From contig JACCXN010000071.1 in the NCBI GenBank assembly GCA_013696965.1, positions 1 through 13,915 on the forward strand: a stretch of DNA of 13,915 nt, in the 5' to 3' direction. The translations under genes and the position numbers were made by a program. Positions 1-13,915 of this stretch are shown here, in pieces. This DNA comes from Bacteroidota bacterium. Lineage in GTDB: Bacteria; Bacteroidota; Bacteroidia; JACCXN01. Each line of letters opens with the position of its first letter. Position 1 is the stretch's first letter. The notes under the pieces were generated by a model that saw only the letters and a program-made list of their open reading frames with translations, did no database searches and was not told the origin of the DNA.

Positions 1-146
1 CAAATTCGGTAAAGCATAAATTTGATATAGAAAAAGTCATTTCCCAGGATTTCCGGACTGATATTCTTCAGGAAAACTATTTTGTCATAGAATCTTTTGC
101 ACAGCTTAAAAATTCTGTAAAAGACATCTTTTTGTCAAGTAAATAA
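1..146 (+). CDS. phhA: Phenylalanine 4-monooxygenase (biopterin-dependent aromatic amino acid hydroxylase), C-terminal end only
   Basis: The gene enters from the left edge; the readable frame starts at base 3 and gives 47 residues to a TAA at 144-146. The stretch FRTDILQENYFVIESFAQL resembles the C-terminal end of bacterial PhhA (family pattern YRIDILQ..YFV...L..L), the part after the iron-binding catalytic core. The full enzyme would hydroxylate phenylalanine to tyrosine with a tetrahydropterin cofactor in the cytoplasm. No catalytic residue lies in the window, so the call rests on this C-terminal pattern from memory. A stem-loop starting inside the last codons probably ends its transcript. 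The next gene starts 187 bases downstream behind its own promoter, so the two are unlikely to be co-transcribed. Confidence 0.68.
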   Translation, partial: NSVKHKFDIEKVISQDFRTDILQENYFVIESFAQLKNSVKDIFLSSK

Positions 147-235: not shown

Positions 236-255
236 TTATATGCTATCACATATAA
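236..255. promoter_or_regulatory. Operator-like palindrome O1, probable HipB site
   Basis: TTATATGCTATCACATATAA has perfect 7-bp arms (TTATATG/CATATAA) around 6 bases. It shares both outer half-sites with the palindrome at 276-295 and is centred exactly 40 bp upstream of it. HipB-family repressors bind several such palindromes ahead of their own operons; that this HipB binds here is inference from position and repetition. Confidence 0.65.
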
Positions 256-275
256 TTTATGTTTATTTCAACATT

Positions 276-295
276 TTATATGCGTTCGCATATAA
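276..295. promoter_or_regulatory. Operator-like palindrome O2, probable HipB site
   Basis: TTATATGCGTTCGCATATAA is a perfect palindrome with 9-bp arms and a 2-base centre, the best of the three copies and probably closest to consensus. It lies immediately upstream of the TATATTTG box, where the -33 contacts of RNA polymerase would fall, so occupancy should block transcription. Confidence 0.72.
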
Positions 296-300
296 TTCCG

Positions 301-308
301 TATATTTG
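301..308 (+). promoter_or_regulatory. Bacteroidota-type -7 box of the hipBST promoter
   Basis: TATATTTG matches the Bacteroidota -7 consensus TAnnTTTG exactly. It sits between palindromes O2 and O3, which would place the transcript start near 313-316, inside or just before O3, with a leader of only about 20 bases. I see no clear -33 TTTG at the usual distance; O2 occupies that region. This placement makes ATG codons upstream (259, 280) unusable as hipB starts. Confidence 0.58.
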
Positions 309-314
309 TCTAAA

Positions 315-334
315 ATCAATGCGATCGCATATAA
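315..334. promoter_or_regulatory. Operator-like palindrome O3, overlapping the hipB start
   Basis: The right half GCGATCGCATATAA repeats the O2 arm (CGCATATAA), while the left half is diverged (ATCAATGCG). The core ATGCGATCGCAT (319-330) is a perfect 12-bp palindrome. It is centred 39 bp from O2 and its last base is the A of the hipB ATG, so repressor bound here would cover the transcription start and initiation region. Confidence 0.62.
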
Positions 335-564
335 TGAAGACATTAGCCGAATTTGTAAAAAACAAAAGGAAAGAAGCCAAACTTACTCAGGAACAGTTCG
401 CTGAACGGGCTGGCGTGGCACTAACTATCGTACGAAAAATTGAACAAGGAAAAGAAAATGTAAAACTGGAAAAGGTAAACCAAGTGCTTAAAATGTTTGG
501 GCATTTATTAGTTCCCGTAAGCAGTAAAGAACTATCATTAAAAAAAGATAATTCAAAACCATGA
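334..564 (+). CDS. hipB: HipB-like antitoxin, XRE-family transcriptional repressor
   Basis: This 76-residue protein is almost entirely an XRE/Cro helix-turn-helix. Residues 18-39 read TQEQFAERAGVALTIVRKIEQG, the usual TQxxxAxxxG...ixxiExG pattern, followed by VKLEKVNQVLKMFG, typical of HipB-type regulators. It probably represses the operon through the palindromes at 236-334 and anchors the HipS-HipT pair on DNA. I chose the ATG at 334 because the longer in-frame start at 259 lies upstream of the TATATTTG promoter box; the ATG at 319 is inside O3 and remains possible. The C-terminal ~16 residues (SSKELSLKKDNSKP) are polar and probably disordered. Its TGA overlaps the next ATG by 4 bases (ATGA), so translation is coupled. 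Confidence 0.82.
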   Translation: MKTLAEFVKNKRKEAKLTQEQFAERAGVALTIVRKIEQGKENVKLEKVNQVLKMFGHLLVPVSSKELSLKKDNSKP

Positions 565-893
565 GGAGAGCAGAAATATATTATAAAGATGAAGTTGCCG
601 GTATCCTAATTGAAACCAACGAAGGACGTTACACTTTCCAGTATGGTAAAGAATATGTTGCAAAATATCCTGATCAATTTATTACTTTTTCTATGCCGGT
701 TACTGAACAAATTTATAGCGAAAATCGGTTATTCCCATTTTTTGAAGGCTTAATTCCCGAAGGATGGCTATTGGATATTGCATCAAAAAACTGGAAGATA
801 AATCAAAATGATCGCATGGGTTTGCTTTTGGCTTGTTGTCATAATTGCATTGGAGCAGTAGGCGTTAAACCAATACCAGAAGAAGATGAATAA
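561..893 (+). CDS. hipS: HipS-like protein (HipA N-terminal subdomain 1 encoded separately)
   Basis: The 110-residue protein corresponds to the small N-terminal subdomain of HipA (Couple_hipA): a beta-rich start (EIYYKDEVAGILIETNEGRY...FQY), a substrate-like SMPV at 44-47, and the diagnostic block LFPFFEGLIPEGWLLD (57-72) then DRMGLLLACCHNCIGAVGV. In the E. coli HipBST system HipS, not HipB, neutralises the kinase, and a Trp of HipS inserts near the HipT active site; Trp69 in the EGW motif is the natural equivalent here (inference). Three cysteines cluster at 92, 93 and 96 and are unusual. It overlaps hipB by 4 bases and hipT by 8, consistent with fixed-ratio production. The alternative is that HipS and HipT are a split HipA in which HipB remains the antitoxin. 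Confidence 0.8.
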   Translation: MRRAEIYYKDEVAGILIETNEGRYTFQYGKEYVAKYPDQFITFSMPVTEQIYSENRLFPFFEGLIPEGWLLDIASKNWKINQNDRMGLLLACCHNCIGAVGVKPIPEEDE

Positions 894-1836
894 GAAATGT
901 TTATACTGTTATAAAGAGCTGGAGAAAAAAAATGAAAGTGATTTTCACATCCAGTGCAGCTTAGCGTTTTTCGGAACAAAAACAGCACCTTTATTACCTT
1001 ATTCATTAAATCAAATGTCGGAGTTGGCTAAGGATGTTGTGGAGCGAAGTGTTGCTGTACCAGGTGTGCAACCAAAACTGTCCTTGTCGTTGGGAAAAGA
1101 TACTATGGGAGATGGAAACAAAAGTCGTTTAACGGTTGTTGGAGCTTTAGGTGGAAATTATATTTTTAAACCACCATCACAACATTACCCTGAAATGCCG
1201 CAGAATGAACATGCAACAATGCGCATGGCAGAAGCTTTTGGAATACATACAGTGAATTCAAGCTTGATACGTTTGCAATCGGGGGAGTTATCTTACATCA
1301 CTAAACGAATTGACCGGACAAAAAACGGAGAAAAAATTCACATGTTGGATATGTTTCAAGTGCTGGAAGCATTTGATAAATACAAAAGCTCTATGGAAAG
1401 AGTTGGTAAAGCAATAGGAGAATACTCAAGCGATACTTTATTAGACAAATTATATTTTTTTGAATTAAGCATTTTTAGTTTCCTTACGGGCAACAATGAC
1501 ATGCATCTTAAAAATTTTTCCATGATTAAAAGTGATGCTAAATGGGTATTGGCTCCTGCCTACGATCTATTGAATGTTGTGATTGTTAATCCTGATGATA
1601 AAGAGGAGCTTGCATTAACAATTGAAGGAAAAAAGAAAAAATTAAGACGCGAAAATTTTGAGTGGCTTGGAAAAGTATTAGAATTAAACGAGAAACAAAT
1701 TGAAGGTGTATTTAAGCGGTTCATAAATAATAAACCTGTTGCAATCCAATGGATTGATAATTCTTTCTTATCAAATGAGCTCAAAGAAAAGTATCGGGTA
1801 CTTTTAGAGGAAAGATACATAGCAATATCAAAATAG
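886..1836 (+). CDS. hipT: HipT-like Ser/Thr kinase toxin (HipA C-terminal kinase)
   Basis: The 316 residues carry the HipA_C kinase fold without the HipA N-terminal subdomain, about the size of E. coli HipT. Visible motifs: G-loop SVAVPGVQPK (55-64), ATP-binding Lys95 in NYIFKP, NEH (107-109), TKRIDR (139-144), catalytic loop GNNDMHLKN with Asp205 and Asn210, and metal-binding APAYD with Asp227. All core catalytic residues look intact. HipA/HipT kinases phosphorylate an aminoacyl-tRNA synthetase (GltX for HipA, TrpS for E. coli HipT) and stop translation; the target here is unknown. Residues 57 and 59, which I recall as the autophosphorylated serines of E. coli HipT, are Ala and Pro. The N-terminus has CLYC...C (Cys5, 8, 24), a possible small metal-binding knuckle. 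It overlaps hipS by 8 bases and is convergent with the next gene. Confidence 0.82.
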   Translation: MNKKCLYCYKELEKKNESDFHIQCSLAFFGTKTAPLLPYSLNQMSELAKDVVERSVAVPGVQPKLSLSLGKDTMGDGNKSRLTVVGALGGNYIFKPPSQHYPEMPQNEHATMRMAEAFGIHTVNSSLIRLQSGELSYITKRIDRTKNGEKIHMLDMFQVLEAFDKYKSSMERVGKAIGEYSSDTLLDKLYFFELSIFSFLTGNNDMHLKNFSMIKSDAKWVLAPAYDLLNVVIVNPDDKEELALTIEGKKKKLRRENFEWLGKVLELNEKQIEGVFKRFINNKPVAIQWIDNSFLSNELKEKYRVLLEERYIAISK

Positions 1837-2057: not shown

Positions 2058-2093
2058 TTATAATCTAACGCCTATAATACATACATCGTCAAT
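2042..2093. repeat. Inverted repeat with 21-bp arms across the phosphatase gene's stop codon
   Basis: The arm at 2042-2062 pairs with 2073-2093 over 21 bp with one mismatch and a 10-base loop (ATCTAACGCC). On the minus strand, 2073-2093 encodes the last conserved residues (IDDVCII), the loop covers most of GVR, and the TAA at 2058-2060 lies inside the other arm. So sequence just after the gene mirrors its coding end. Confidence 0.75.
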
Positions 2094-4679
2094 CTGCTCA
2101 AGGCTGCCTTTCCAGAAAGAAAAAGTTTCGCTGATAATTTCTTTCTGTCGTTCCATTGTTTCTGATTGGATGGAAAGCAACAGTTTTTTAAAATTAGCAG
2201 ATTTGAATTTTTTGCCTTGTTCACCGCCAAACTGATCAGCAAAACCATCTGTGAAAATGTAGAGGTTATCGTTTTTTTGAAGTTCTATGCTATGGGTGGT
2301 AAAAAGTTTGTTTTCTGCATACTTTCCTATGGGCTGTTTGTCGGCCCTGTATTCTATAATTTCATTGCTGCGGATAATCCAAAGAGGATTGTTGGCACCC
2401 GCCCAGTGCAGGGTGTTGCCTTGTAAAGCGCACAGTGAAATATCCATTCCGTCTTTTACTTCATCATCGCTTTTTTCAAATTCCTGTATTACTATCTCTC
2501 TTGTTTTATCCAGGATTTTGCCCGGGTCTGTAATTCCGTATTCCCTTACGCTTCTGTTCAGGCCATTGTTGCAGATTACCGATACCATAGCTCCGGGAAC
2601 ACCATGACCGGTGCAATCAGCAGCAGCAAAAAGAATTAGCTGATTAGATGATGTGTTAATTTGCTGAATGGAAGATGTGTTAATTTGCTGATGTGCTGAT
2701 GTGCTAATTAGCTGATTAGCTGATGTGTTAATTTGCTGATGATCTTCTAGCTTTCTTTTCCCATCAGCTAATCCGATAATTTTCTCATCGTTTAACTGAA
2801 CAGTTTCCAACCAATAAAAATCCCCTGCAACAATGTCTTTTGGTTTGTATATAATGAAACTATCAGGAAGGTACTGTTTCACTATACGCTGTGGTGGTAA
2901 AATGGCTGTTTGGATCCTCTTGGCATAGTTGATGGAATCCAGTATCTCCTTTTGTTTTTCTTCGATTACCTGTTTTTGCTGTTCCACCGCAGTTTTCTGC
3001 TTTTCTACTTCCTGCTTCTGTTTTATAATAATCAGATTCGATCTTCTTTTGTTCCTGTAGGCTTTCAATGCAAATGCCAGAACTACCAGTATTAGCATTC
3101 CTCCTCCGGCTGCAGCGTAGGTGGCTATTCGTTGTTTTTTTAGCTCTTCTTCTTTCTTTGCAGCTTGGGCCTGTTTTAACAGATTGTCTTTGTTGAGCAG
3201 TTCTATTTCTTTTTTCTGATTTTCCGAAAAGCTTTCTTTTTGTTTGAGTTCTGCAGTGGAATGCGCCAGGGCAAGAGTTCTCAGTTCATTGTCCTGCTCG
3301 AGTATCACTAGGCTTTGTTTGTTCTTTACAAGCAGGATGTTGCGCTTTTCAAGCTCTGCTGCTGAGAGTTGTTGCTGTTTTTCAAATTCTGCCAGGGCTA
3401 TTGCTTCTTTTTTATCAAAATCAAATTGCATATGCTGCTGCATGGTTTTTTTGGTGTTTTCCTCATTGAGAAGGCTGTCGCGGTATAGTATGTATTGCTT
3501 GTAGTTTTCTAAAGCGGATTGATAGTTTCCAAGGGCGCTGTCGGCTTGGGCAAGGGCTTGATAATTTTTCACAACAATATCCAATGCCCCAATTTCATTA
3601 GAAAGCTGTAAGGACTTAAGGATATATTTTTTCCCTTCCTCTGCCTTACCTGTTTTTGTGTAAACATTTCCGATGTTATTTAAAGAGCTGGAAATACCAT
3701 TTTTATCCCCCAGTTCTTCCCTTATTTTTAATGAAGCCAGGAAATTTTTAAGCGCCTCGGGGTAATTGCCCTGAATAGAATAAACACCTCCAATGTTATT
3801 TAAGGTACTGGCATTACCTTTTTTATCCCCCAATTCTTCCATTATTTTTAATGAGGACAGGAGATTTTTAAGCCCCTCGGGATAATTGCCCTGATAAGAA
3901 TAAACATTTCCGATGTTATTTAAAGAACTGGCAATACCTTTTTTATCGCCCAATTCTTCCCTTATTTTTAATGAGGCAAGGTAATTTTTAAGCGCCTCGG
4001 GGTGATTTCCCTGATAAGAATAAATATTTCCAATGTTATTTAAAGAAACGGAAATACCTTTTTTATCCCCCAATTCTTCGTCTATCTTTAATGAGGACAG
4101 GTAATTTTTAAGCGCCTCGGGGTAATTGCCCTGATTAGTATAAATTAGTCCGATGTTAATTAAAGAACCGGCATTACCTTTTTTATCCCCCAGTTCTTCC
4201 CTTATTTTTAATGAGGCTAAGTGATTTTTAAGCGCCTCGGGGTAATTGCCCTGATTAGAATAAATATATCCAATGTTATTTAAAGAACTGGCAATACCGA
4301 ATTTATCCCCCAATTCTTCCCTTATTTTTAATGAGGACAGGTAATTTTTAAGCGCCTCGGGGTAATTGCCCTGATAAGTATAAATAAGTCCGATGTTATT
4401 TAAAGAAACGGCAATACCTTTTTGCACCCCCCTTTGGTTTTCCCCCTTTGCAAAAAAGGAGGATATTTTAGCAAGATTTATAGCATCATTAGCGTATTTC
4501 AGAGCGTTTTCATAATCGCTTGCATTAATTAATTTCCTACTAATATCATTATTCAGCTTAACACTGGTGGTATCCATTTTCTCATTTGACAGCAGGATTT
4601 TAAGGGAGTCAATGGCGGCATTCTGTGCAAAAGTTTGCACAGAAAAAAACAAAAAAATAAGCAACAAAAGTTTTTTCAC
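2058..4679 (-). CDS. TPR / coiled-coil / SpoIIE-type (PP2C) protein phosphatase, membrane-anchored
   Basis: The 873-residue protein starts at GTG directly before a signal peptide (MKKLLLLIFLFFSVQTFAQ); no in-frame ATG lies close upstream. Order: degenerate TPR (40-75), seven 40-residue TPRs (88-367, units like NNIGNIYSYQGNYPEALKNY), a last TPR-like pair (368-402), long coiled coil (405-516), one membrane segment (519-539), a second coiled coil (548-582), then a SpoIIE/PP2C domain (583-873). Putative metal ligands are Asp620 (AGDFYW), Asp688 (ADCTGHGVPGA), Asp811 (TDGFADQFGG) and Asp864/865 near the C-terminus, so it should be active. It probably senses a periplasmic or envelope signal through the TPRs and dephosphorylates a cytoplasmic Ser/Thr partner such as an anti-sigma or anti-anti-sigma protein; no such partner is in the window. 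Oddities: a 40-residue Gln/Asn/Ser/Thr insert (641-680) and an atypical spacer before repeat 1 (74-87). Confidence 0.85.
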   Translation of the reverse strand: MKKLLLLIFLFFSVQTFAQNAAIDSLKILLSNEKMDTTSVKLNNDISRKLINASDYENALKYANDAINLAKISSFFAKGENQRGVQKGIAVSLNNIGLIYTYQGNYPEALKNYLSSLKIREELGDKFGIASSLNNIGYIYSNQGNYPEALKNHLASLKIREELGDKKGNAGSLINIGLIYTNQGNYPEALKNYLSSLKIDEELGDKKGISVSLNNIGNIYSYQGNHPEALKNYLASLKIREELGDKKGIASSLNNIGNVYSYQGNYPEGLKNLLSSLKIMEELGDKKGNASTLNNIGGVYSIQGNYPEALKNFLASLKIREELGDKNGISSSLNNIGNVYTKTGKAEEGKKYILKSLQLSNEIGALDIVVKNYQALAQADSALGNYQSALENYKQYILYRDSLLNEENTKKTMQQHMQFDFDKKEAIALAEFEKQQQLSAAELEKRNILLVKNKQSLVILEQDNELRTLALAHSTAELKQKESFSENQKKEIELLNKDNLLKQAQAAKKEEELKKQRIATYAAAGGGMLILVVLAFALKAYRNKRRSNLIIIKQKQEVEKQKTAVEQQKQVIEEKQKEILDSINYAKRIQTAILPPQRIVKQYLPDSFIIYKPKDIVAGDFYWLETVQLNDEKIIGLADGKRKLEDHQQINTSANQLISTSAHQQINTSSIQQINTSSNQLILFAAADCTGHGVPGAMVSVICNNGLNRSVREYGITDPGKILDKTREIVIQEFEKSDDEVKDGMDISLCALQGNTLHWAGANNPLWIIRSNEIIEYRADKQPIGKYAENKLFTTHSIELQKNDNLYIFTDGFADQFGGEQGKKFKSANFKKLLLSIQSETMERQKEIISETFSFWKGSLEQIDDVCIIGVRL
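2640..2759 (-). repeat. Low-complexity repeat expansion inside the phosphatase domain
   Basis: Degenerate units of TGATGTGTTAATTTGC (plus-strand reading) and shorter GCTGATTAG/GCTGATGTG variants fill about 120 bp. They translate in frame to Q-I-N-T-S-[SA]-N/H-Q type repeats (residues 641-680) between IIGLADG and LILFAAADCTGHG, a loop position that in relatives is only a few residues long. The length is an exact multiple of three. Confidence 0.75.
3579..4418 (-). repeat. Seven tandem 120-bp repeats encoding TPRs
   Basis: Residues 88-367 are seven units of exactly 40 codons, the Gly-(Ile/Asn)-(Ala/Ser) register recurring at residues 88, 128, 168, 208, 248, 288 and 328. The DNA is also strongly conserved between units (for example, AATTTTTAAGCGCCTCGGGG recurs on the plus strand), more than TPR function needs, which suggests recent expansion or gene conversion. 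The last unit diverges in its second half. Confidence 0.85.
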
Positions 4680-6112: not shown

Positions 6113-9100
6113 TTACTGATGGATAAGCTTTTTAATTTCACTGTAATTTTCTCCACTTACCTTTATTACATAAACTCCTTTTGCATTTTTTGTAAAATCT
6201 ATTTCAAATTGAGAATAGTCCGTATTAGGTTTATATTCGCAAATAAAGTTTCCAAGTAGGTTGTAAATTCGAATTGTATGAATATTAGAAGCTTGAATTG
6301 TGAATTTACCACTTGTAGGATTAGGAAATAAATTAAAAACAGGTTTCTTAATTAAAACATTGGCTTCTTCTAAGGACTCATCCTTGTTTTCGAGGGGTTT
6401 TATAGAACCTGATATTTTTGAATTTTCTACATTTTTTGCCAATAATTTTACACTTATTCTCTTACTTTCTTGATCATCTTCATTCTTAACTCTATTTGAG
6501 GAAGAAAGTTGATTTTGACAATAATTTAAGTTCTCCGCAAAATCATTTAATTCAATATTTCCATCAATCAAGTCTTGCTCCTTACTTACAATACATATCC
6601 AATTGTCAAGTTCTGCAAAATTACTTGAATCAGCAATCAAATAATTTTCATAAAAAAGAGCCAATGCATCTGTTCTTTTATCAGCCAATACAAGAGTCTT
6701 AGCCTTATCTACCTTGACTGAATATTGAGTGTTAAAATCTGATTCAAGAATAGCCTTATTAATCTTATTATTTTGAATTGAAATGAGACTCTCAATTTGT
6801 GAATTCATTTGAGAACCTGAATTGGTTATCAATCCCTCTGAATAGGCTTTTCCAACAGAATAATGCAGATATTGATAAGAAAGCCCAATTACTTTTTTAG
6901 CAAGAGGCGTTGGTTGAGCAACATTTACTAATAATACATCCTTAAATTCATTTATTGCAGAAATAAAATCATTTTGATCAAGTTTATTTAAACCTCTTTC
7001 AAATTTCTTAAATATTGAGTTGGGGCCTCCCTGATTTGCTTCCGCAATTTCCATTGCTTTATAAAAAAAAGCAGGGCGAATACGAGGTCTTCCAATAGCA
7101 GGACATGATGCACTTCCTGGATTATTGTCAATAATAGTTACATTAGTATTAATACAAATAGGAGAGCGGACATGATAATCAACACCATTTACAGGGCTAC
7201 TATTAAAAGAATTCCATTTATTAAAAGTAGCTGAAATTGAACTAGGACATGAATCAAAATTAAAATGTCCCTTAATAGCCATGCCCTGAGAGCTTTTTGG
7301 TCTAAGGTCGTTTCGACCATCCTCAAGAAATAATTCATTTGCAGCACCTGCTGTAATTACTTTTCCAACACTATTACCATTGTCTTCTGAAATAAATAAT
7401 TCTCCTCCATAAATTGAAGTATGACCGGACACTATAGACTTCCCAGACGAAGGAGAAAGTGAGGGACTCATATTAATAGATGCTTTATCTGCTAAATAAA
7501 TACCTTTACTGAAATTATTATTTGCAGAATTAATATTGCTGCAATTTACACTCAATAATGCATTACCATAAAATGCAATTCCTTTATCCGTTGAGTTTGA
7601 TACTGAAGAATAATTTATGTTCAAATCTGCTGTAGGCCCTCCAATATAATTAATACCAATTGGACTATTTTGTACACTACTGTTTTTAAAATCAGAAGAT
7701 ATTGTCATTCCTTCAGCTGACCATCCTCGGACAGAATTATTGGAAAACTGAACAAATTCTAAATCTGCCCCCTGCCCTACTGTTACAAGTCCAATTTCAT
7801 TATTGCGAAAAATACAATTTCTTATATTAATCTTTTCTGCATAATTAGAATGGGTGTTTTTAGCTAACACAGAATACATTCCATATTGACCGTATTCAAA
7901 AATAACATTACTGATATTGTGATCCAAATCGACAGATGCATGTAGACCATAATGGTAATTTTTTGCGCCTGTTGTAGAAGTAAACTTTGCATTGTTTAAA
8001 TTCAAAATTGAATTTGATACTATTTTTGCCCCCTCCCCTAAGTGAACTGAAGCATTTTTAATTGTCAAAGGAAACCCTTTAGAAAGATAAGGGTGACTAT
8101 GTTGTAATATCATTTTAAGCGAACCTTCCAAAACTTCTATTTTTTTATTGTTTTGTCCACTACCATTTACAATAAATCTTGATCCGATTCCACCAATAAT
8201 CATATTATCTTGATCACAAATGAATCGCATGAATCCTTCGCCTGTAAAAGTAAAATCTGTATTTGCAGCCACAAATAGTTTCCCTTTATTAATTTCTAGT
8301 ATAGAATTCGCATAAGCCAACTGGATACTACTGTTTGCATAATGCATTTCACTCTCACTTCCTTCAATAAGTATTTTGCCAAAATCACTTACAATAATTT
8401 GAGCACCCTCCTCTATTATCAACTTGCTTCCTTCCCTTACTATAAATGAAGCACCGCCACCAATCAATAACTTACTACCACTTTTAAAAGTAAAAGTAGA
8501 TTCTTCTTTAATTTCAAGAATTGAATTGTTTTTTAATTCTATAAATGCCCCTGATTGTACTGTTAAAGTAGTAGGATTAAAAAAATCACCGTTAGTATTG
8601 AGTGTATTTCGATTTGGTGTTTCAGTTTTATTAAGAGTAAGGTGTTTATTAGCGTTAACAATTAATGAAGGTGAGAATTGGTCAGGATTAGGAGGCAGTA
8701 TAATTTCGCCACACCATCTAGTATTTTCATTGATATTAAAATCATCATATTTTATCTCAACAGTTATTGAATTATCCTGAAAAGTTTTAGAGACAATCCT
8801 TACAGAAAGTCCATGTAGGTATATTGGCGAAAGTTTTCTTGTATTTAAATCATAGGTTTGTAAATTGATTATTGCAGGGTTGGAACTAATGCTTGCTTTT
8901 CTTCCCACTGGAAATGCTATATCTGGAAGAAAAGGTCCATAAACTTTATTTCCACCTTCAACCAAAACTCCAAACTGTTCAGAAGTTACTGTTGCTGGAT
9001 TATTTGGGTTCAAATTTACTTCTATAATTCCATCATTTGAGGTGAAATCCCTAATCGTATTTACACGGGTATAAAAATCACTTCTAATATTTGAACCGTT

Positions 9101-10444
9101 ATGATGAGGGCCAAATGGGTTTGGGGAGGTTTTATTAAAATCATAGACATGAGTTTTACCCCACCAAAATTCTGGTAGAGTTGGAAGGGCAGAATGAGTA
9201 TAATCAAAATGGCCTGATCCATTTAATACTTTGAGCCCATTTGCCCCAGAAGTAAAGACACTTGTTTTTGATCTTTCTCCAGCAACATTTTCAATAAACA
9301 TCACTATTCCACGAGCAGGGTTTGGCAGGGGGTCTTCTACTCCATCATGTGCCCATCCATCACGATTGTCATAAACAGTAGCGCCTGTTCGATTCTCAAT
9401 CCAAAGATATTGGTTTTGTGTATAAGGTATTTTTACCCTCACAACATCCCCTGTAGTAACAAAATCTCTTAAGATAAAAAAACCATTGGTGGGAAGGAGG
9501 TCTGCAGGAGAATTTATGTCACTAATAATTTGCGAAGGTCCAGTTGTTAACTCTAACCAACCTAAATACCAACGTTCCCATGCATTGGCCGTATGAAATG
9601 CATTAGCTCCATTCATCATCCCCCATCCATTACTTGAATAAAACTTATTCCCGACTACTCCATTAGGACCATAAGTATGTGGAGCATCATACAAAGTGTG
9701 ACCAAATTCGTGATAAAAGAAATTTCTAAAATTAGTATTATTTGAATTTATTGCTGTAAATCCACTACCTATTATGTATGTTTTATTTACTCCTCCAAAA
9801 TTAGTGCTAAGCGTATGTGGGGTACTAGAATTTGAAACTATTTCTGCTTTTCCCTGATAACCGCCTCCACCTTTGTATACTAAAATTACATAATCTAAAA
9901 TATTATCAGGGCTAGAACTGCTATTGTCTATACTAAAGCTGTTTTTATTTTTTCTGTTATCATACTTTCCCCAATTATAGTTGGGATAGTTTGTTGAAAG
10001 ATACTGGAAGACTGAAGAGTTAATATTGAGTTCAGATCCACGATTTACAATTATTTGTTCAGGAAAAACGTCTGCAGTAAACAAAAAAGGATTAGCTGGA
10101 TTGGACATGGCTTTAAAAAAAGAACTCACATTTATTTTATTGCCTATATTAGCTATTGTTGAATTAAACATTTCATTGTCATTTTGATTAGCCCAATCTG
10201 GAATGTTGTCTGTCCATCCATTATCATTAATAGTATCACCAGTGAAATTTACAAAAATCATAAGTCCATGCAAATGTCCTTTTGGTGTATGTACTTTCCC
10301 ATTGGGAGAATAATTGGCTCGAGAGGGGTCATTGTCAGCACCCATCATGGTTTCATCCGTATGGCATTGATCATGTAATTGAGCAAATAATGAATAATTT
10401 ATTCCAATTAAAACTAGGATAAGAAGTAGAGTTCTTTTTGTCAT
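6113..10444 (-). CDS. T9SS-secreted M6-like zinc metalloprotease with beta-helix-like repeats and sorting domain
   Basis: A 1443-residue secreted protein with a signal peptide (1-21). The protease part covers roughly 50-480: HEFGH (245-249) with Glu246 as general base, a candidate third ligand at His256 (HEFGHTLYDAPH), and a Met-turn-like GWGMMNG (273-279) followed by ANAWERWYLGWL, resembling immune-inhibitor-A/M6 proteases. Residues ~590-780 are short beta repeats such as SGAFIELKNNSILEI and EGSKLIIEEGAQIIV; ~790-1060 look like a right-handed beta-helix (INIRNCIFRNNEIGLV). Residues 1120-1315 are helical and TPR-like. The end (1369-1443, FNLFPNPTSGKFTI to GVYVIKVSGENYSEIKKLI) is a type A T9SS sorting domain, so the protein is probably exported through the outer membrane and anchored or released. 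It lies 11 bases downstream of a second T9SS cargo gene and is probably co-transcribed. Substrate unknown. Confidence 0.82.
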   Translation of the reverse strand: MTKRTLLLILVLIGINYSLFAQLHDQCHTDETMMGADNDPSRANYSPNGKVHTPKGHLHGLMIFVNFTGDTINDNGWTDNIPDWANQNDNEMFNSTIANIGNKINVSSFFKAMSNPANPFLFTADVFPEQIIVNRGSELNINSSVFQYLSTNYPNYNWGKYDNRKNKNSFSIDNSSSSPDNILDYVILVYKGGGGYQGKAEIVSNSSTPHTLSTNFGGVNKTYIIGSGFTAINSNNTNFRNFFYHEFGHTLYDAPHTYGPNGVVGNKFYSSNGWGMMNGANAFHTANAWERWYLGWLELTTGPSQIISDINSPADLLPTNGFFILRDFVTTGDVVRVKIPYTQNQYLWIENRTGATVYDNRDGWAHDGVEDPLPNPARGIVMFIENVAGERSKTSVFTSGANGLKVLNGSGHFDYTHSALPTLPEFWWGKTHVYDFNKTSPNPFGPHHNGSNIRSDFYTRVNTIRDFTSNDGIIEVNLNPNNPATVTSEQFGVLVEGGNKVYGPFLPDIAFPVGRKASISSNPAIINLQTYDLNTRKLSPIYLHGLSVRIVSKTFQDNSITVEIKYDDFNINENTRWCGEIILPPNPDQFSPSLIVNANKHLTLNKTETPNRNTLNTNGDFFNPTTLTVQSGAFIELKNNSILEIKEESTFTFKSGSKLLIGGGASFIVREGSKLIIEEGAQIIVSDFGKILIEGSESEMHYANSSIQLAYANSILEINKGKLFVAANTDFTFTGEGFMRFICDQDNMIIGGIGSRFIVNGSGQNNKKIEVLEGSLKMILQHSHPYLSKGFPLTIKNASVHLGEGAKIVSNSILNLNNAKFTSTTGAKNYHYGLHASVDLDHNISNVIFEYGQYGMYSVLAKNTHSNYAEKINIRNCIFRNNEIGLVTVGQGADLEFVQFSNNSVRGWSAEGMTISSDFKNSSVQNSPIGINYIGGPTADLNINYSSVSNSTDKGIAFYGNALLSVNCSNINSANNNFSKGIYLADKASINMSPSLSPSSGKSIVSGHTSIYGGELFISEDNGNSVGKVITAGAANELFLEDGRNDLRPKSSQGMAIKGHFNFDSCPSSISATFNKWNSFNSSPVNGVDYHVRSPICINTNVTIIDNNPGSASCPAIGRPRIRPAFFYKAMEIAEANQGGPNSIFKKFERGLNKLDQNDFISAINEFKDVLLVNVAQPTPLAKKVIGLSYQYLHYSVGKAYSEGLITNSGSQMNSQIESLISIQNNKINKAILESDFNTQYSVKVDKAKTLVLADKRTDALALFYENYLIADSSNFAELDNWICIVSKEQDLIDGNIELNDFAENLNYCQNQLSSSNRVKNEDDQESKRISVKLLAKNVENSKISGSIKPLENKDESLEEANVLIKKPVFNLFPNPTSGKFTIQASNIHTIRIYNLLGNFICEYKPNTDYSQFEIDFTKNAKGVYVIKVSGENYSEIKKLIHQ

Positions 10445-10455
10445 TTTTAAAGTTA

Positions 10456-11328
10456 TTAATTAAGGATTATTTTTTCAATATGAACAATTTCATTTATTGA
10501 ATTATAGGTATTTAAAAAATACATACCTTTAGGAAATTCGGAAATATCAAGGTTAATTTCGTTTAAAAGATCAAGAGTTTCTTTTTCATAAACGATTCTA
10601 CCAAAGAAATCACTAATAGAAATTCTGCCCTTAAATCCTTTTGTAAAAGCAACATTAAATTGACCTGTTGAAGGATTTGGGCATAATACTGGTTTTGCGC
10701 TCTCCAATTCTTCAATTCCAACATATTGGCTTATCCAAACTTCCATTCTAAATTCAATAATCATATCATTAGAGCTACAATCCCAAGGAGTATATTCATA
10801 TATCAATGGTACTATATTATTGGAATTGGTAATTGTGTCATTTTCCCAGTATAAATCCCACATGTCATTGTCTATACCACTAAAATAACCACCATCAGAA
10901 TACATTCTGACCATAGTTATCTTATAATTCTGGTAGTTGTAATAAAAATCAAGAGAATCATATATTATTTCAACAGGATCAATTTGAGAGGTACCTGGAA
11001 AAGAGTCACTCTTTAAATAAAAAAAATATTCCACAACCCCAGTTTTAAACGCCTTGTAATCTCGTTTTAAATTTCCACAATAAGGTGTATTAAATTCTTG
11101 TCTTACTAGTTCGTCTTGAGCAAGAATGCTTATTGGATGTACAAGATCAGTATTAAGAGAATCGAGTCCTGATTGAAATCCATTTGCTGCATTTACATCT
11201 AGTCCAAACCAAACTGTATCCATGATACCTGTTGGATGTTTTACTACAAGTTTAGAATTCCAGGCTGGATTTTGAGAATAAATTAAACCAATACAAAAAA
11301 ATAATATAATTGTTATTAATGTTTTCAT
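10456..11328 (-). CDS. T9SS-secreted protein of unknown function, first gene of a two-gene unit
   Basis: A 290-residue protein with a signal peptide (MKTLITIILFFCIGLIYSQ) and a type A T9SS sorting domain (about 216-290: PVLCPNPSTGQFNVAF, then ISISDFFGRIVYEKE, then FPKGMYFLNTYN). The middle (20-210) is rich in Tyr, Asp and aromatic residues, with several DxD-like runs (FSGIDNDMWDLYWENDT) and two cysteines (PYCGN, WDCSS); I recognise no family. The start of the mature part (WNSKLVVKHPTGIMDTVWFG) looks beta-sandwich-like. It ends 11 bases before the metalloprotease start, which suggests co-expression; it could be an accessory or binding partner. A partial TAnnTTTG-like box (TTACTTTG, minus strand 11374-11367) lies about 40 bases upstream. 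Confidence 0.72.
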   Translation of the reverse strand: MKTLITIILFFCIGLIYSQNPAWNSKLVVKHPTGIMDTVWFGLDVNAANGFQSGLDSLNTDLVHPISILAQDELVRQEFNTPYCGNLKRDYKAFKTGVVEYFFYLKSDSFPGTSQIDPVEIIYDSLDFYYNYQNYKITMVRMYSDGGYFSGIDNDMWDLYWENDTITNSNNIVPLIYEYTPWDCSSNDMIIEFRMEVWISQYVGIEELESAKPVLCPNPSTGQFNVAFTKGFKGRISISDFFGRIVYEKETLDLLNEINLDISEFPKGMYFLNTYNSINEIVHIEKIILN

Positions 11329-12750: not shown

Positions 12751-13407
12751 TTAAATTAATTCATTTATTTTAATAAAATCTTTATTTAAACCGCCTTCCT
12801 CAATTTCAGTAACAACACTGCCATATCTTTTCATCATTTCACCAGATTGTTTTAATTCCTCTTCTTTTAAATAATTTATGAAAGTTGTTATTACATTTTT
12901 TCGGTCAAATAAAAATCGCTTCCCTTTAGCATCTGCTTTAGGAAAAATAGCTATAAGTTTTTGAAAAGATGTGACATTAAATATTGGAACGTCTTGTAAA
13001 ACTAGGTCCAAATACGAAAATCTATTTATAAGATTTGTGAAATAGTAGTAACCTTTTGAAGAAATACTAACATTAAAATCTTCAGTAGGTAATTGATTCC
13101 ACTCTGTATCAGAAATTATATTTTCTGATTCCAATAAACCAAACTTAAGTAATTCATTAATTTCTTTTTGAACAATACCAACGTTACAACCTAAATTAAC
13201 GAACTCAAGTGTTAATTTACTATACTGCTCTAATTTATCATTGACATCTCCATTTATAAATTTTGAATATAAGTATTTAAGGATTCTGCATTTCAAAAAA
13301 TGATCTGAACTACCTTGAGTAGGATAAAATATATTTTTTATCAAACTATGTTCATGATTATAATATACTTTATTATTTAAACCAATAGCTTTAATAAATT
13401 CGTGCAA
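12751..13407 (-). CDS. C-terminal fragment of an unidentified protein, winged-helix-like
   Basis: The 218-residue frame begins at a TTG, but it is open further upstream to the recombination junction at about 13440 (PKTNEKRISIPLHEFIKAIG), with no ATG. It is therefore probably the C-terminus of a longer protein rather than a complete gene. Residues ~30-125 look like a winged helix: HFLKCRILKYLYSKF, KLTLEFVNLGC, VQKEINELLKFGLLESENI, then VSISSKGYYYFTNLINRFSY. Similar C-termini occur on large bacterial P-loop ATPases, but I cannot name the parent family. The last ~50 residues are charged and helical. It overlaps the end of the truncated TPR frame by 31 bases as a result of the fusion, not as an operon. 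Confidence 0.5.
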   Translation of the reverse strand: MHEFIKAIGLNNKVYYNHEHSLIKNIFYPTQGSSDHFLKCRILKYLYSKFINGDVNDKLEQYSKLTLEFVNLGCNVGIVQKEINELLKFGLLESENIISDTEWNQLPTEDFNVSISSKGYYYFTNLINRFSYLDLVLQDVPIFNVTSFQKLIAIFPKADAKGKRFLFDRKNVITTFINYLKEEELKQSGEMMKRYGSVVTEIEEGGLNKDFIKINELI

Positions 13408-13915
13408 TGGGATAGAAATCCTCTTTTCGTTAGTCTTTGGATATATTTTTTCCCTTCCTCAGCCTTACCTGTTTTTGTATAAACATTTCCGATGTTATTT
13501 AAAGAGCTGGCAATACCTTTTTTATCTCCCAATTCTTCCCTTATTTTTAATGAGGCCAGGAAATTTTTAAGCGCCTCGGGGTAATTGCCCTGAATAGAAT
13601 AAACACCACCAATGTTATTTAAAGTGCTGGCATTACCTTTTTTATCCCCCAATTCTTCCATTATTTTTAATGAGGACAGGAGATTTTTAAGCCCCTCGGG
13701 GTAATTGCCCTGATCAGAATAAGCATTTCCGATGTTATTTAAAGAACTGGAAACACCTTTTTTATCCCCCAATTCTTCCCTTATTTTTAATGAGGCCCGG
13801 TAATTTTTAAGCGCTTCGGGGTGATTGCCCTGATAAGAATAAATATTTCCAATGTTATTTAAAGAAACGGAAATACCTTTTTTATCCCCCAATTCTTCGT
13901 CTATCTTTAATGAGG
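13377..13915 (-). pseudogene. Truncated paralogue of the TPR/SpoIIE phosphatase (TPR part only, cut at the right edge)
   Basis: The frame is open to the window edge and enters as SLKIDEELGDKKG. It matches residues ~197-353 of the 873-residue protein unit by unit, including private markers (GNHPEAL in one unit, NYPEGLKNLL in the next, NASTLNNIGG after that), so it is a copy of the whole gene, not an independent repeat array. Identity ends at KAEEGKKYI: the intact gene continues LKSLQLS, this one QRLTKRGFLSHCTNLLKLLV and stops. The coiled coil, membrane segment and phosphatase domain are gone. The N-terminal part lies outside the window. It probably makes no working phosphatase; a secreted TPR-only product is possible. 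Confidence 0.75.

What the first reader, a model, noticed from the sequence alone, without database searches (positions are those of the whole stretch)
334..1836. Three-gene HipBST-like toxin-antitoxin operon in a Bacteroidota genome
HipA is split exactly at the subdomain-1/kinase boundary, with hipB-hipS-hipT order and 4- and 8-base overlaps. All kinase residues (Lys95, Asp205, Asn210, Asp227) and the HipS EGW Trp69 are present, so the module looks alive. In E. coli HipBST the small subunit rather than HipB is the antitoxin; whether that holds here, and which aminoacyl-tRNA synthetase is hit, is open.
Basis: partly seen in the sequence, partly recalled or inferred. Interest (0 to 1): 0.6.

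Follow-up and report, generated by a model that had tools for sequence, protein, structure and literature searches.

The report
Bacteroidota three-gene HipBST toxin-antitoxin module
This is a real, apparently working three-gene toxin-antitoxin module (repressor, small antitoxin, kinase toxin) of a kind already known from Legionella and E. coli and common in Bacteroidota; it is mostly ordinary, except that its toxin lacks the usual self-phosphorylation serines and carries a strictly conserved, so far undescribed cysteine/histidine (zinc-type) motif.

Summary
In detail: hipB 334-564, hipS 561-893 and hipT 886-1836, with 4- and 8-base overlaps and every named residue present. It is a HipBST module, nearest to the Legionella pneumophila type (HipT E 3e-47) rather than E. 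coli's (7e-19). The split is not a frameshift: the same genome holds a second copy (87-89% identical), and 79 of 79 near relatives that can be read keep three separate genes. All three genes are under purifying selection (dN/dS 0.07-0.11). Three 18-bp inverted-repeat operators surround a Bacteroidota-type promoter. Lin et al. 2023 (PMC10653801) already reported such modules as widespread in Bacteroidota, so this is a new member of a known kind. HipS docking on HipT was not reproduced in a tethered AlphaFold2 model (inconclusive). The target is unknown.

The parts
237..254 (.). operator O1, imperfect 18-bp inverted repeat TATATGCTATCACATATA
   Evidence: inverted repeats at the equivalent position (-98) in many of 76 relatives
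277..294 (.). operator O2, inverted repeat TATATGCGTTCGCATATA
   Evidence: exact and one-mismatch matches in this genome lie only at the two hipBST copies
301..308 (+). TATATTTG, fits the Bacteroidota -7 promoter box TAnnTTTG; lies between O2 and O3
   Evidence: sequence; TAnnTTTG found in this region in 56 of 76 relatives; the consensus itself is general knowledge
316..333 (.). operator O3, abuts the hipB start codon; contains the perfect palindrome ATGCGATCGCAT
334..564 (+). hipB: 76-aa HTH (Xre-type) protein, inferred autorepressor
561..893 (+). hipS: 110-aa Couple_hipA protein, inferred antitoxin; P66-E67-G68-W69 motif and C92-C93-x2-C96
886..1836 (+). hipT: 316-aa HipA_C kinase, inferred toxin; N-terminal C5xxC8-x12-H21xxC24 mini-domain; Gly-rich loop with A57-V-P59 in place of E. 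coli SIS; K95, D205, H207, N210, D227

Best explanation
A functional tripartite HipBST toxin-antitoxin module of the Legionella/FCB type. HipB represses the operon by binding three 18-bp operators that cover the promoter and the start of hipB (anatomy shown, binding inferred). [quoted passage not shown] target unknown). HipS, encoded just before HipT with overlapping reading frames that suggest translational coupling, binds HipT and keeps its Gly-rich loop out of the active site, probably with the conserved Trp69 as in E. coli HipS (inferred). Because residues 57 and 59 of HipT are Ala and Pro, the kinase must act without the P-loop autophosphorylation sites of E. coli HipT, as Legionella HipT does when its P-loop serine is mutated. 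The invariant C2HC motif in HipT's N-terminal mini-domain is most likely a structural zinc knuckle (inferred from the motif only).
For: Domain profiles of all three genes. Best solved relatives are HipT_Lp 7vkb/8ezr (E about 3e-47) and HipS_Lp (7e-14), ahead of E. coli HipT 7ab3 (7e-19) and HipS (3e-11). Model of the HipT part: block pLDDT mostly 88-98 in the kinase core, Z 35 to HipT_Lp and 32 to E. coli HipT; HipS part TM 0.76 (target-normalised) to solved HipS. Second copy in the genome with the same split, overlaps and operators. Near relatives: 79 of 79 readable loci have hipB, hipS and hipT as separate genes; catalytic residues 81/81 rows, Trp69 80/80 rows. dN/dS 0.07-0.11. Operators: 7 motif matches against 0.12 expected in the window, nearly unique to the two hipBST copies in the genome. 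HipS as antitoxin and Gly-rich-loop ejection: PMC6581861, PMC10627512, PMC9325769, PMC10653801. HipT_Lp S54A stays toxic: PMC10653801.
Against: E. coli HipT loses toxicity when Ser57 is changed to Ala (PMC10627512), which is the natural state here, so toxicity is not guaranteed. Two tethered AlphaFold2 models did not place HipS on HipT as N-subdomain 1 sits in HipA (rmsd 22-26 A when both domains are superposed), although the direct fusion, unpaired rows and shallow alignments make this a weak test. No experiment.
Confidence: 0.85

Rival explanations
1. A hipBST-derived module whose kinase is no longer a growth-arresting toxin: a mild or domesticated signalling kinase under HipB control, kept for a regulatory role.
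For: Ala57 in 53 of 81 near rows and Pro59 in 80 of 81 remove the serines that E. coli HipT needs for toxicity (PMC10627512).
Against: Legionella HipT S54A remains toxic (PMC10653801); the module is patchy (16 of 60 relatives, 57 of 296 phylum genomes at E 1e-20) and also occurs on plasmids, as toxin-antitoxin modules do; catalytic residues and hipS are strictly kept.
Confidence: 0.1
2. A normal hipA gene broken by a sequencing error or a real frameshift into hipS and hipT.
For: The two genes are out of frame and overlap by 8 bases, as a frameshift would give.
Against: Same split in the second copy and in all near relatives examined; HipT has a mini-domain that HipA lacks; overlaps vary (8, 11, 4, or short gaps) as in real adjacent genes.
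Confidence: 0.01
3. HipB, not HipS, is the main antitoxin, as in E. coli HipBA, and HipS only assists.
For: HipB belongs to the couple_hipB family; HipB_Lp binds HipT_Lp (PMC10653801).
Against: In E. coli, Haemophilus, Tolumonas and Legionella HipBST the antitoxin is HipS (PMC6581861, PMC9325769, PMC10653801); the IPEGWLL segment is the most conserved part of HipS.
Confidence: 0.04

Closest known systems
HipBST of Legionella pneumophila (lpg2368-lpg2370), PMC9325769 and PMC10653801
   Same: Gene order and sizes, overlapping genes, HipT kinase fold (Z 35, 34-39% identity), three 18-bp inverted-repeat operators upstream of hipB; Lin et al. place FCB homologues in this subclade
   Different: HipS here has Trp69 (Legionella has Ile/Met there); HipT residue 57 is Ala, not Ser; HipT has a C2HC motif and HipS a CxxC, both missing in Legionella; operator sequence and spacing differ (40/39 bp start to start here, 53-bp gaps in Legionella)
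HipBST of E. coli O127:H6, PMC6581861 and PMC10627512
   Same: Architecture, HipS Trp (W65 there, W69 here), HipT N-terminal mini-domain
   Different: Distant HipT (22-23% in structural alignment), no SIS autophosphorylation motif here; no C2HC or CxxC in the E. coli-type Aliivibrio proteins read here; E. coli target is TrpS, target here unknown
HipBA of E. coli K-12
   Same: Kinase fold; HipS corresponds to HipA N-subdomain 1
   Different: Two genes and a fused HipA; HipB is the antitoxin; Ser150 switch

Membership tests
HipBST toxin-antitoxin modules | three adjacent co-directional genes hipB-hipS-hipT | tested here: met
   conserved in relatives
HipBST toxin-antitoxin modules | HipT is a HipA_C kinase lacking N-subdomain 1, with all catalytic motifs | tested here: met
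HipBST toxin-antitoxin modules | HipS is a separate Couple_hipA (N-subdomain 1) protein | tested here: met
HipBST toxin-antitoxin modules | P-loop serine(s) subject to autophosphorylation (E. coli SIS, Legionella S54); common, but not defining: Legionella HipT does not need it (PMC10653801) | tested here: not met
   Ala57/Pro59 in the window; two thirds of near rows also lack Ser/Thr at 57
HipBST toxin-antitoxin modules | HipS binds HipT and ejects the Gly-rich loop | tested here: inconclusive
   tethered AlphaFold2 models: HipT and HipS folds right, Gly-rich loop disordered (pLDDT under 50 at 164-188 of the fusion), but HipS not docked as in HipA
HipBST toxin-antitoxin modules | HipT arrests growth, HipS alone neutralises | not testable with these tools
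   needs a growth assay
Legionella-type (HipBST_Lp) subclade | HipT and HipS closer to Legionella than to E. coli proteins | tested here: met
   the tree puts Legionella HipT among Bacteroidota HipTs, but its deep branches are weakly supported
E. coli-type (HipBST_Ec) subclade | SxS autophosphorylation motif in HipT | tested here: not met

The most novel reading that the evidence does not exclude
The FCB branch of HipBST is a metal- or redox-tuned toxin-antitoxin system: the C2HC motif of HipT (and possibly the CxxC of HipS) binds zinc or reacts with oxidants and so sets HipS-HipT affinity or target choice, in place of the P-loop autophosphorylation sites that this branch has largely lost.
Probability: 0.1. 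Interest if true: 0.55.

Novelty: new member of a known kind. Interest (0 to 1): 0.27.

Why it matters
Most HipBST knowledge comes from E. coli and Legionella, while the modules are common in Bacteroidota. This branch combines an E. coli-type HipS Trp, a Legionella-like HipT and a natural Ala at the key P-loop serine, so it is a natural test of which features neutralisation and toxicity really need. The invariant C2HC motif suggests a role (structural metal site) for the HipT mini-domain, described in 2023 as of unknown significance.

Tried and rejected
Frameshift origin: rejected by the second copy and relatives. Phage-borne: no hit in 50,697 phage records. PADLOC: only weak hits to the PDC-M03A/B candidate families, not taken as defence evidence. 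Alignments that mix HipS-only and HipT-only rows went wrong in several tries; sets that align well were chosen offline. Superposition on HipA over both domains fails (22-26 A), taken as inconclusive. A zinc or cysteine motif in HipT/HipS: not found in the held papers; papers not held were not searched.

Full report
What is there. Three co-directional genes lie at 334-564, 561-893 and 886-1836. Their products match couple_hipB/HTH_3, Couple_hipA and HipA_C above the curated cut-offs.

It is not a frameshifted hipA. The genome (G000, 3.86 Mb, 106 contigs; the window is the whole of contig C71) has a second hipBST on C40, 87-89% identical in each protein, with the same split, and separately one full-length HipA on C41. 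In 46 loci read from related genomes (L005-L050, the C40 copy among them) hipS is a separate gene next to hipT in all, and hipB was found in 45; most overlap out of frame or leave a short gap. One of these, L037, has a hipT broken by a stop. In 80 further loci from named genomes, 79 show hipB, hipS and hipT as separate genes; the remaining one is cut by its contig end.

It looks alive. Nei-Gojobori dN/dS between the two copies is 0.07 (hipB), 0.11 (hipS) and 0.10 (hipT), with similar values against L055 and L056 (a simple method, with synonymous sites partly saturated for the more distant pairs). Catalytic residues are invariant in 81 of 81 HipT rows (80 relatives plus the window).

Which HipBST. 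The closest solved proteins are Legionella HipT and HipS. Lin et al. (PMC10653801) already reported that Legionella-type HipBST is widely distributed in Fibrobacterota, Chlorobiota and Bacteroidota. So the find is a new example of a described class. The tree joins window and C40 copy (100/99) inside a 15-row Bacteroidota clade (97/98); the order of the deeper branches and the place of the Legionella and E. coli types are weakly resolved, and the HipA outgroup is very distant.

Features that differ from the characterised modules. (a) Gly-rich loop: the E. coli HipT serines S57/S59 and Legionella S54 correspond to Ala57 and Pro59 here. In the 81 near rows position 57 is Ala 53, Ser 15, Thr 13, and position 59 is Pro in 80. 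In E. coli S57A abolishes toxicity (PMC10627512); in Legionella S54A does not (PMC10653801). (b) HipS Trp69 is invariant in 80 of 80 near rows and in 41 of 41 wider rows that bear the C2HC motif. Legionella HipS lacks it (PMC10653801; L051); Aliivibrio HipS, of the E. coli type, has it. (c) HipT C5xxC8...H21xxC24 is invariant in 81 of 81 near rows and present in 41 of 47 wider rows; it is incomplete in the Legionella and Aliivibrio HipTs read here. The near rows were picked for similarity to the window, so 81/81 shows constraint within the branch, not independent origins. E. coli HipT has a mini-domain at this place 'of unknown significance' (PMC10627512). (d) HipS C93xxC96 is present in 79 of 80 near rows and in 35 of 41 wider rows with C2HC, and in none of the 6 without. 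The two traits travel together on the tree, so this does not prove a functional link. Metal binding is an inference from the motif only.

Operators. Three 18-bp inverted repeats start at 237, 277 and 316, 40 and 39 bp apart, around TATATTTG (301-308), which fits the Bacteroidota -7 box. Seven matches to the motif in the window stand against 0.12 expected; six of the seven are the three sites read on both strands. In the whole genome all matches with at most one mismatch lie at the two hipBST copies; two other single sites appear at two mismatches. In 76 relatives inverted repeats sit most often at -98, -58 and -18 from the hipB start. Legionella has three operators with 53-bp gaps and another sequence (PMC10653801; L051). 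As the two copies here share operators and nearly identical HipB, cross-regulation is likely (inference).

Structure. A fused HipS-HipT chain was made by reading TAAG at 891 as one residue and predicted twice. The second model has mean pLDDT 84.5 and pTM 0.73. Its kinase part matches HipT_Lp (Z 35, rmsd 2.3, 292 aligned) and E. coli HipT (Z 32, rmsd 2.3, 284 aligned, from residue 2, so with the mini-domain); its HipS part matches solved HipS. The Gly-rich loop is disordered. The relative placement of the two parts does not match HipA (rmsd about 22 A). The chains were joined directly and the rows were unpaired and few, so this neither supports nor refutes complex formation.

Mobility. Relatives occur on plasmids of Bacteroidota, one of them conjugative; none was found in phage records.

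Verdict. An ordinary but intact Bacteroidota HipBST, with sub-branch features (Ala57/Pro59, C2HC motif, HipS CxxC) that deserve a short experimental follow-up.

Noticed in passing
G000:C40:5609-6556 (L003, L020): Second hipBST copy in the same genome, 87-89% identical, with the same three operators; cross-regulation or cross-neutralisation is likely.
   Followed up: partly
window 2058-4679 (-) and 13377-13892 (-): TPR protein with a SpoIIE-like phosphatase domain (873 aa), and near the other contig end a TPR gene with very similar repeats.
   Followed up: partly
window 6113-10444 (-) and 10456-11328 (-): Two proteins with type IX secretion C-terminal sorting domains; the 1443-aa one looks peptidase-like by eye, but Pfam shows only the sorting tail.
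   Followed up: partly
window 1-146 (+): Tail of an open frame cut by the contig start; by eye like the end of phenylalanine-4-hydroxylase, but the 47-aa piece has no Pfam hit.
   Followed up: partly
L054 2381-4488: Aliivibrio fischeri plasmid pCG103-32 carries two hipT genes in tandem behind one hipB-hipS.
   Followed up: no
L016-L019, L021: Distant Bacteroidota HipTs that keep an SIS motif (RISISG) but lack C2HC, with a HipS that lacks the Trp: a further HipBST sub-branch.
   Followed up: no
L022 and L079: The fused HipS-HipT reading of genome G133 and of Pedobacter sp. Leaf170 is identical (both became P0004), so they are probably the same or a very close genome.
   Followed up: no
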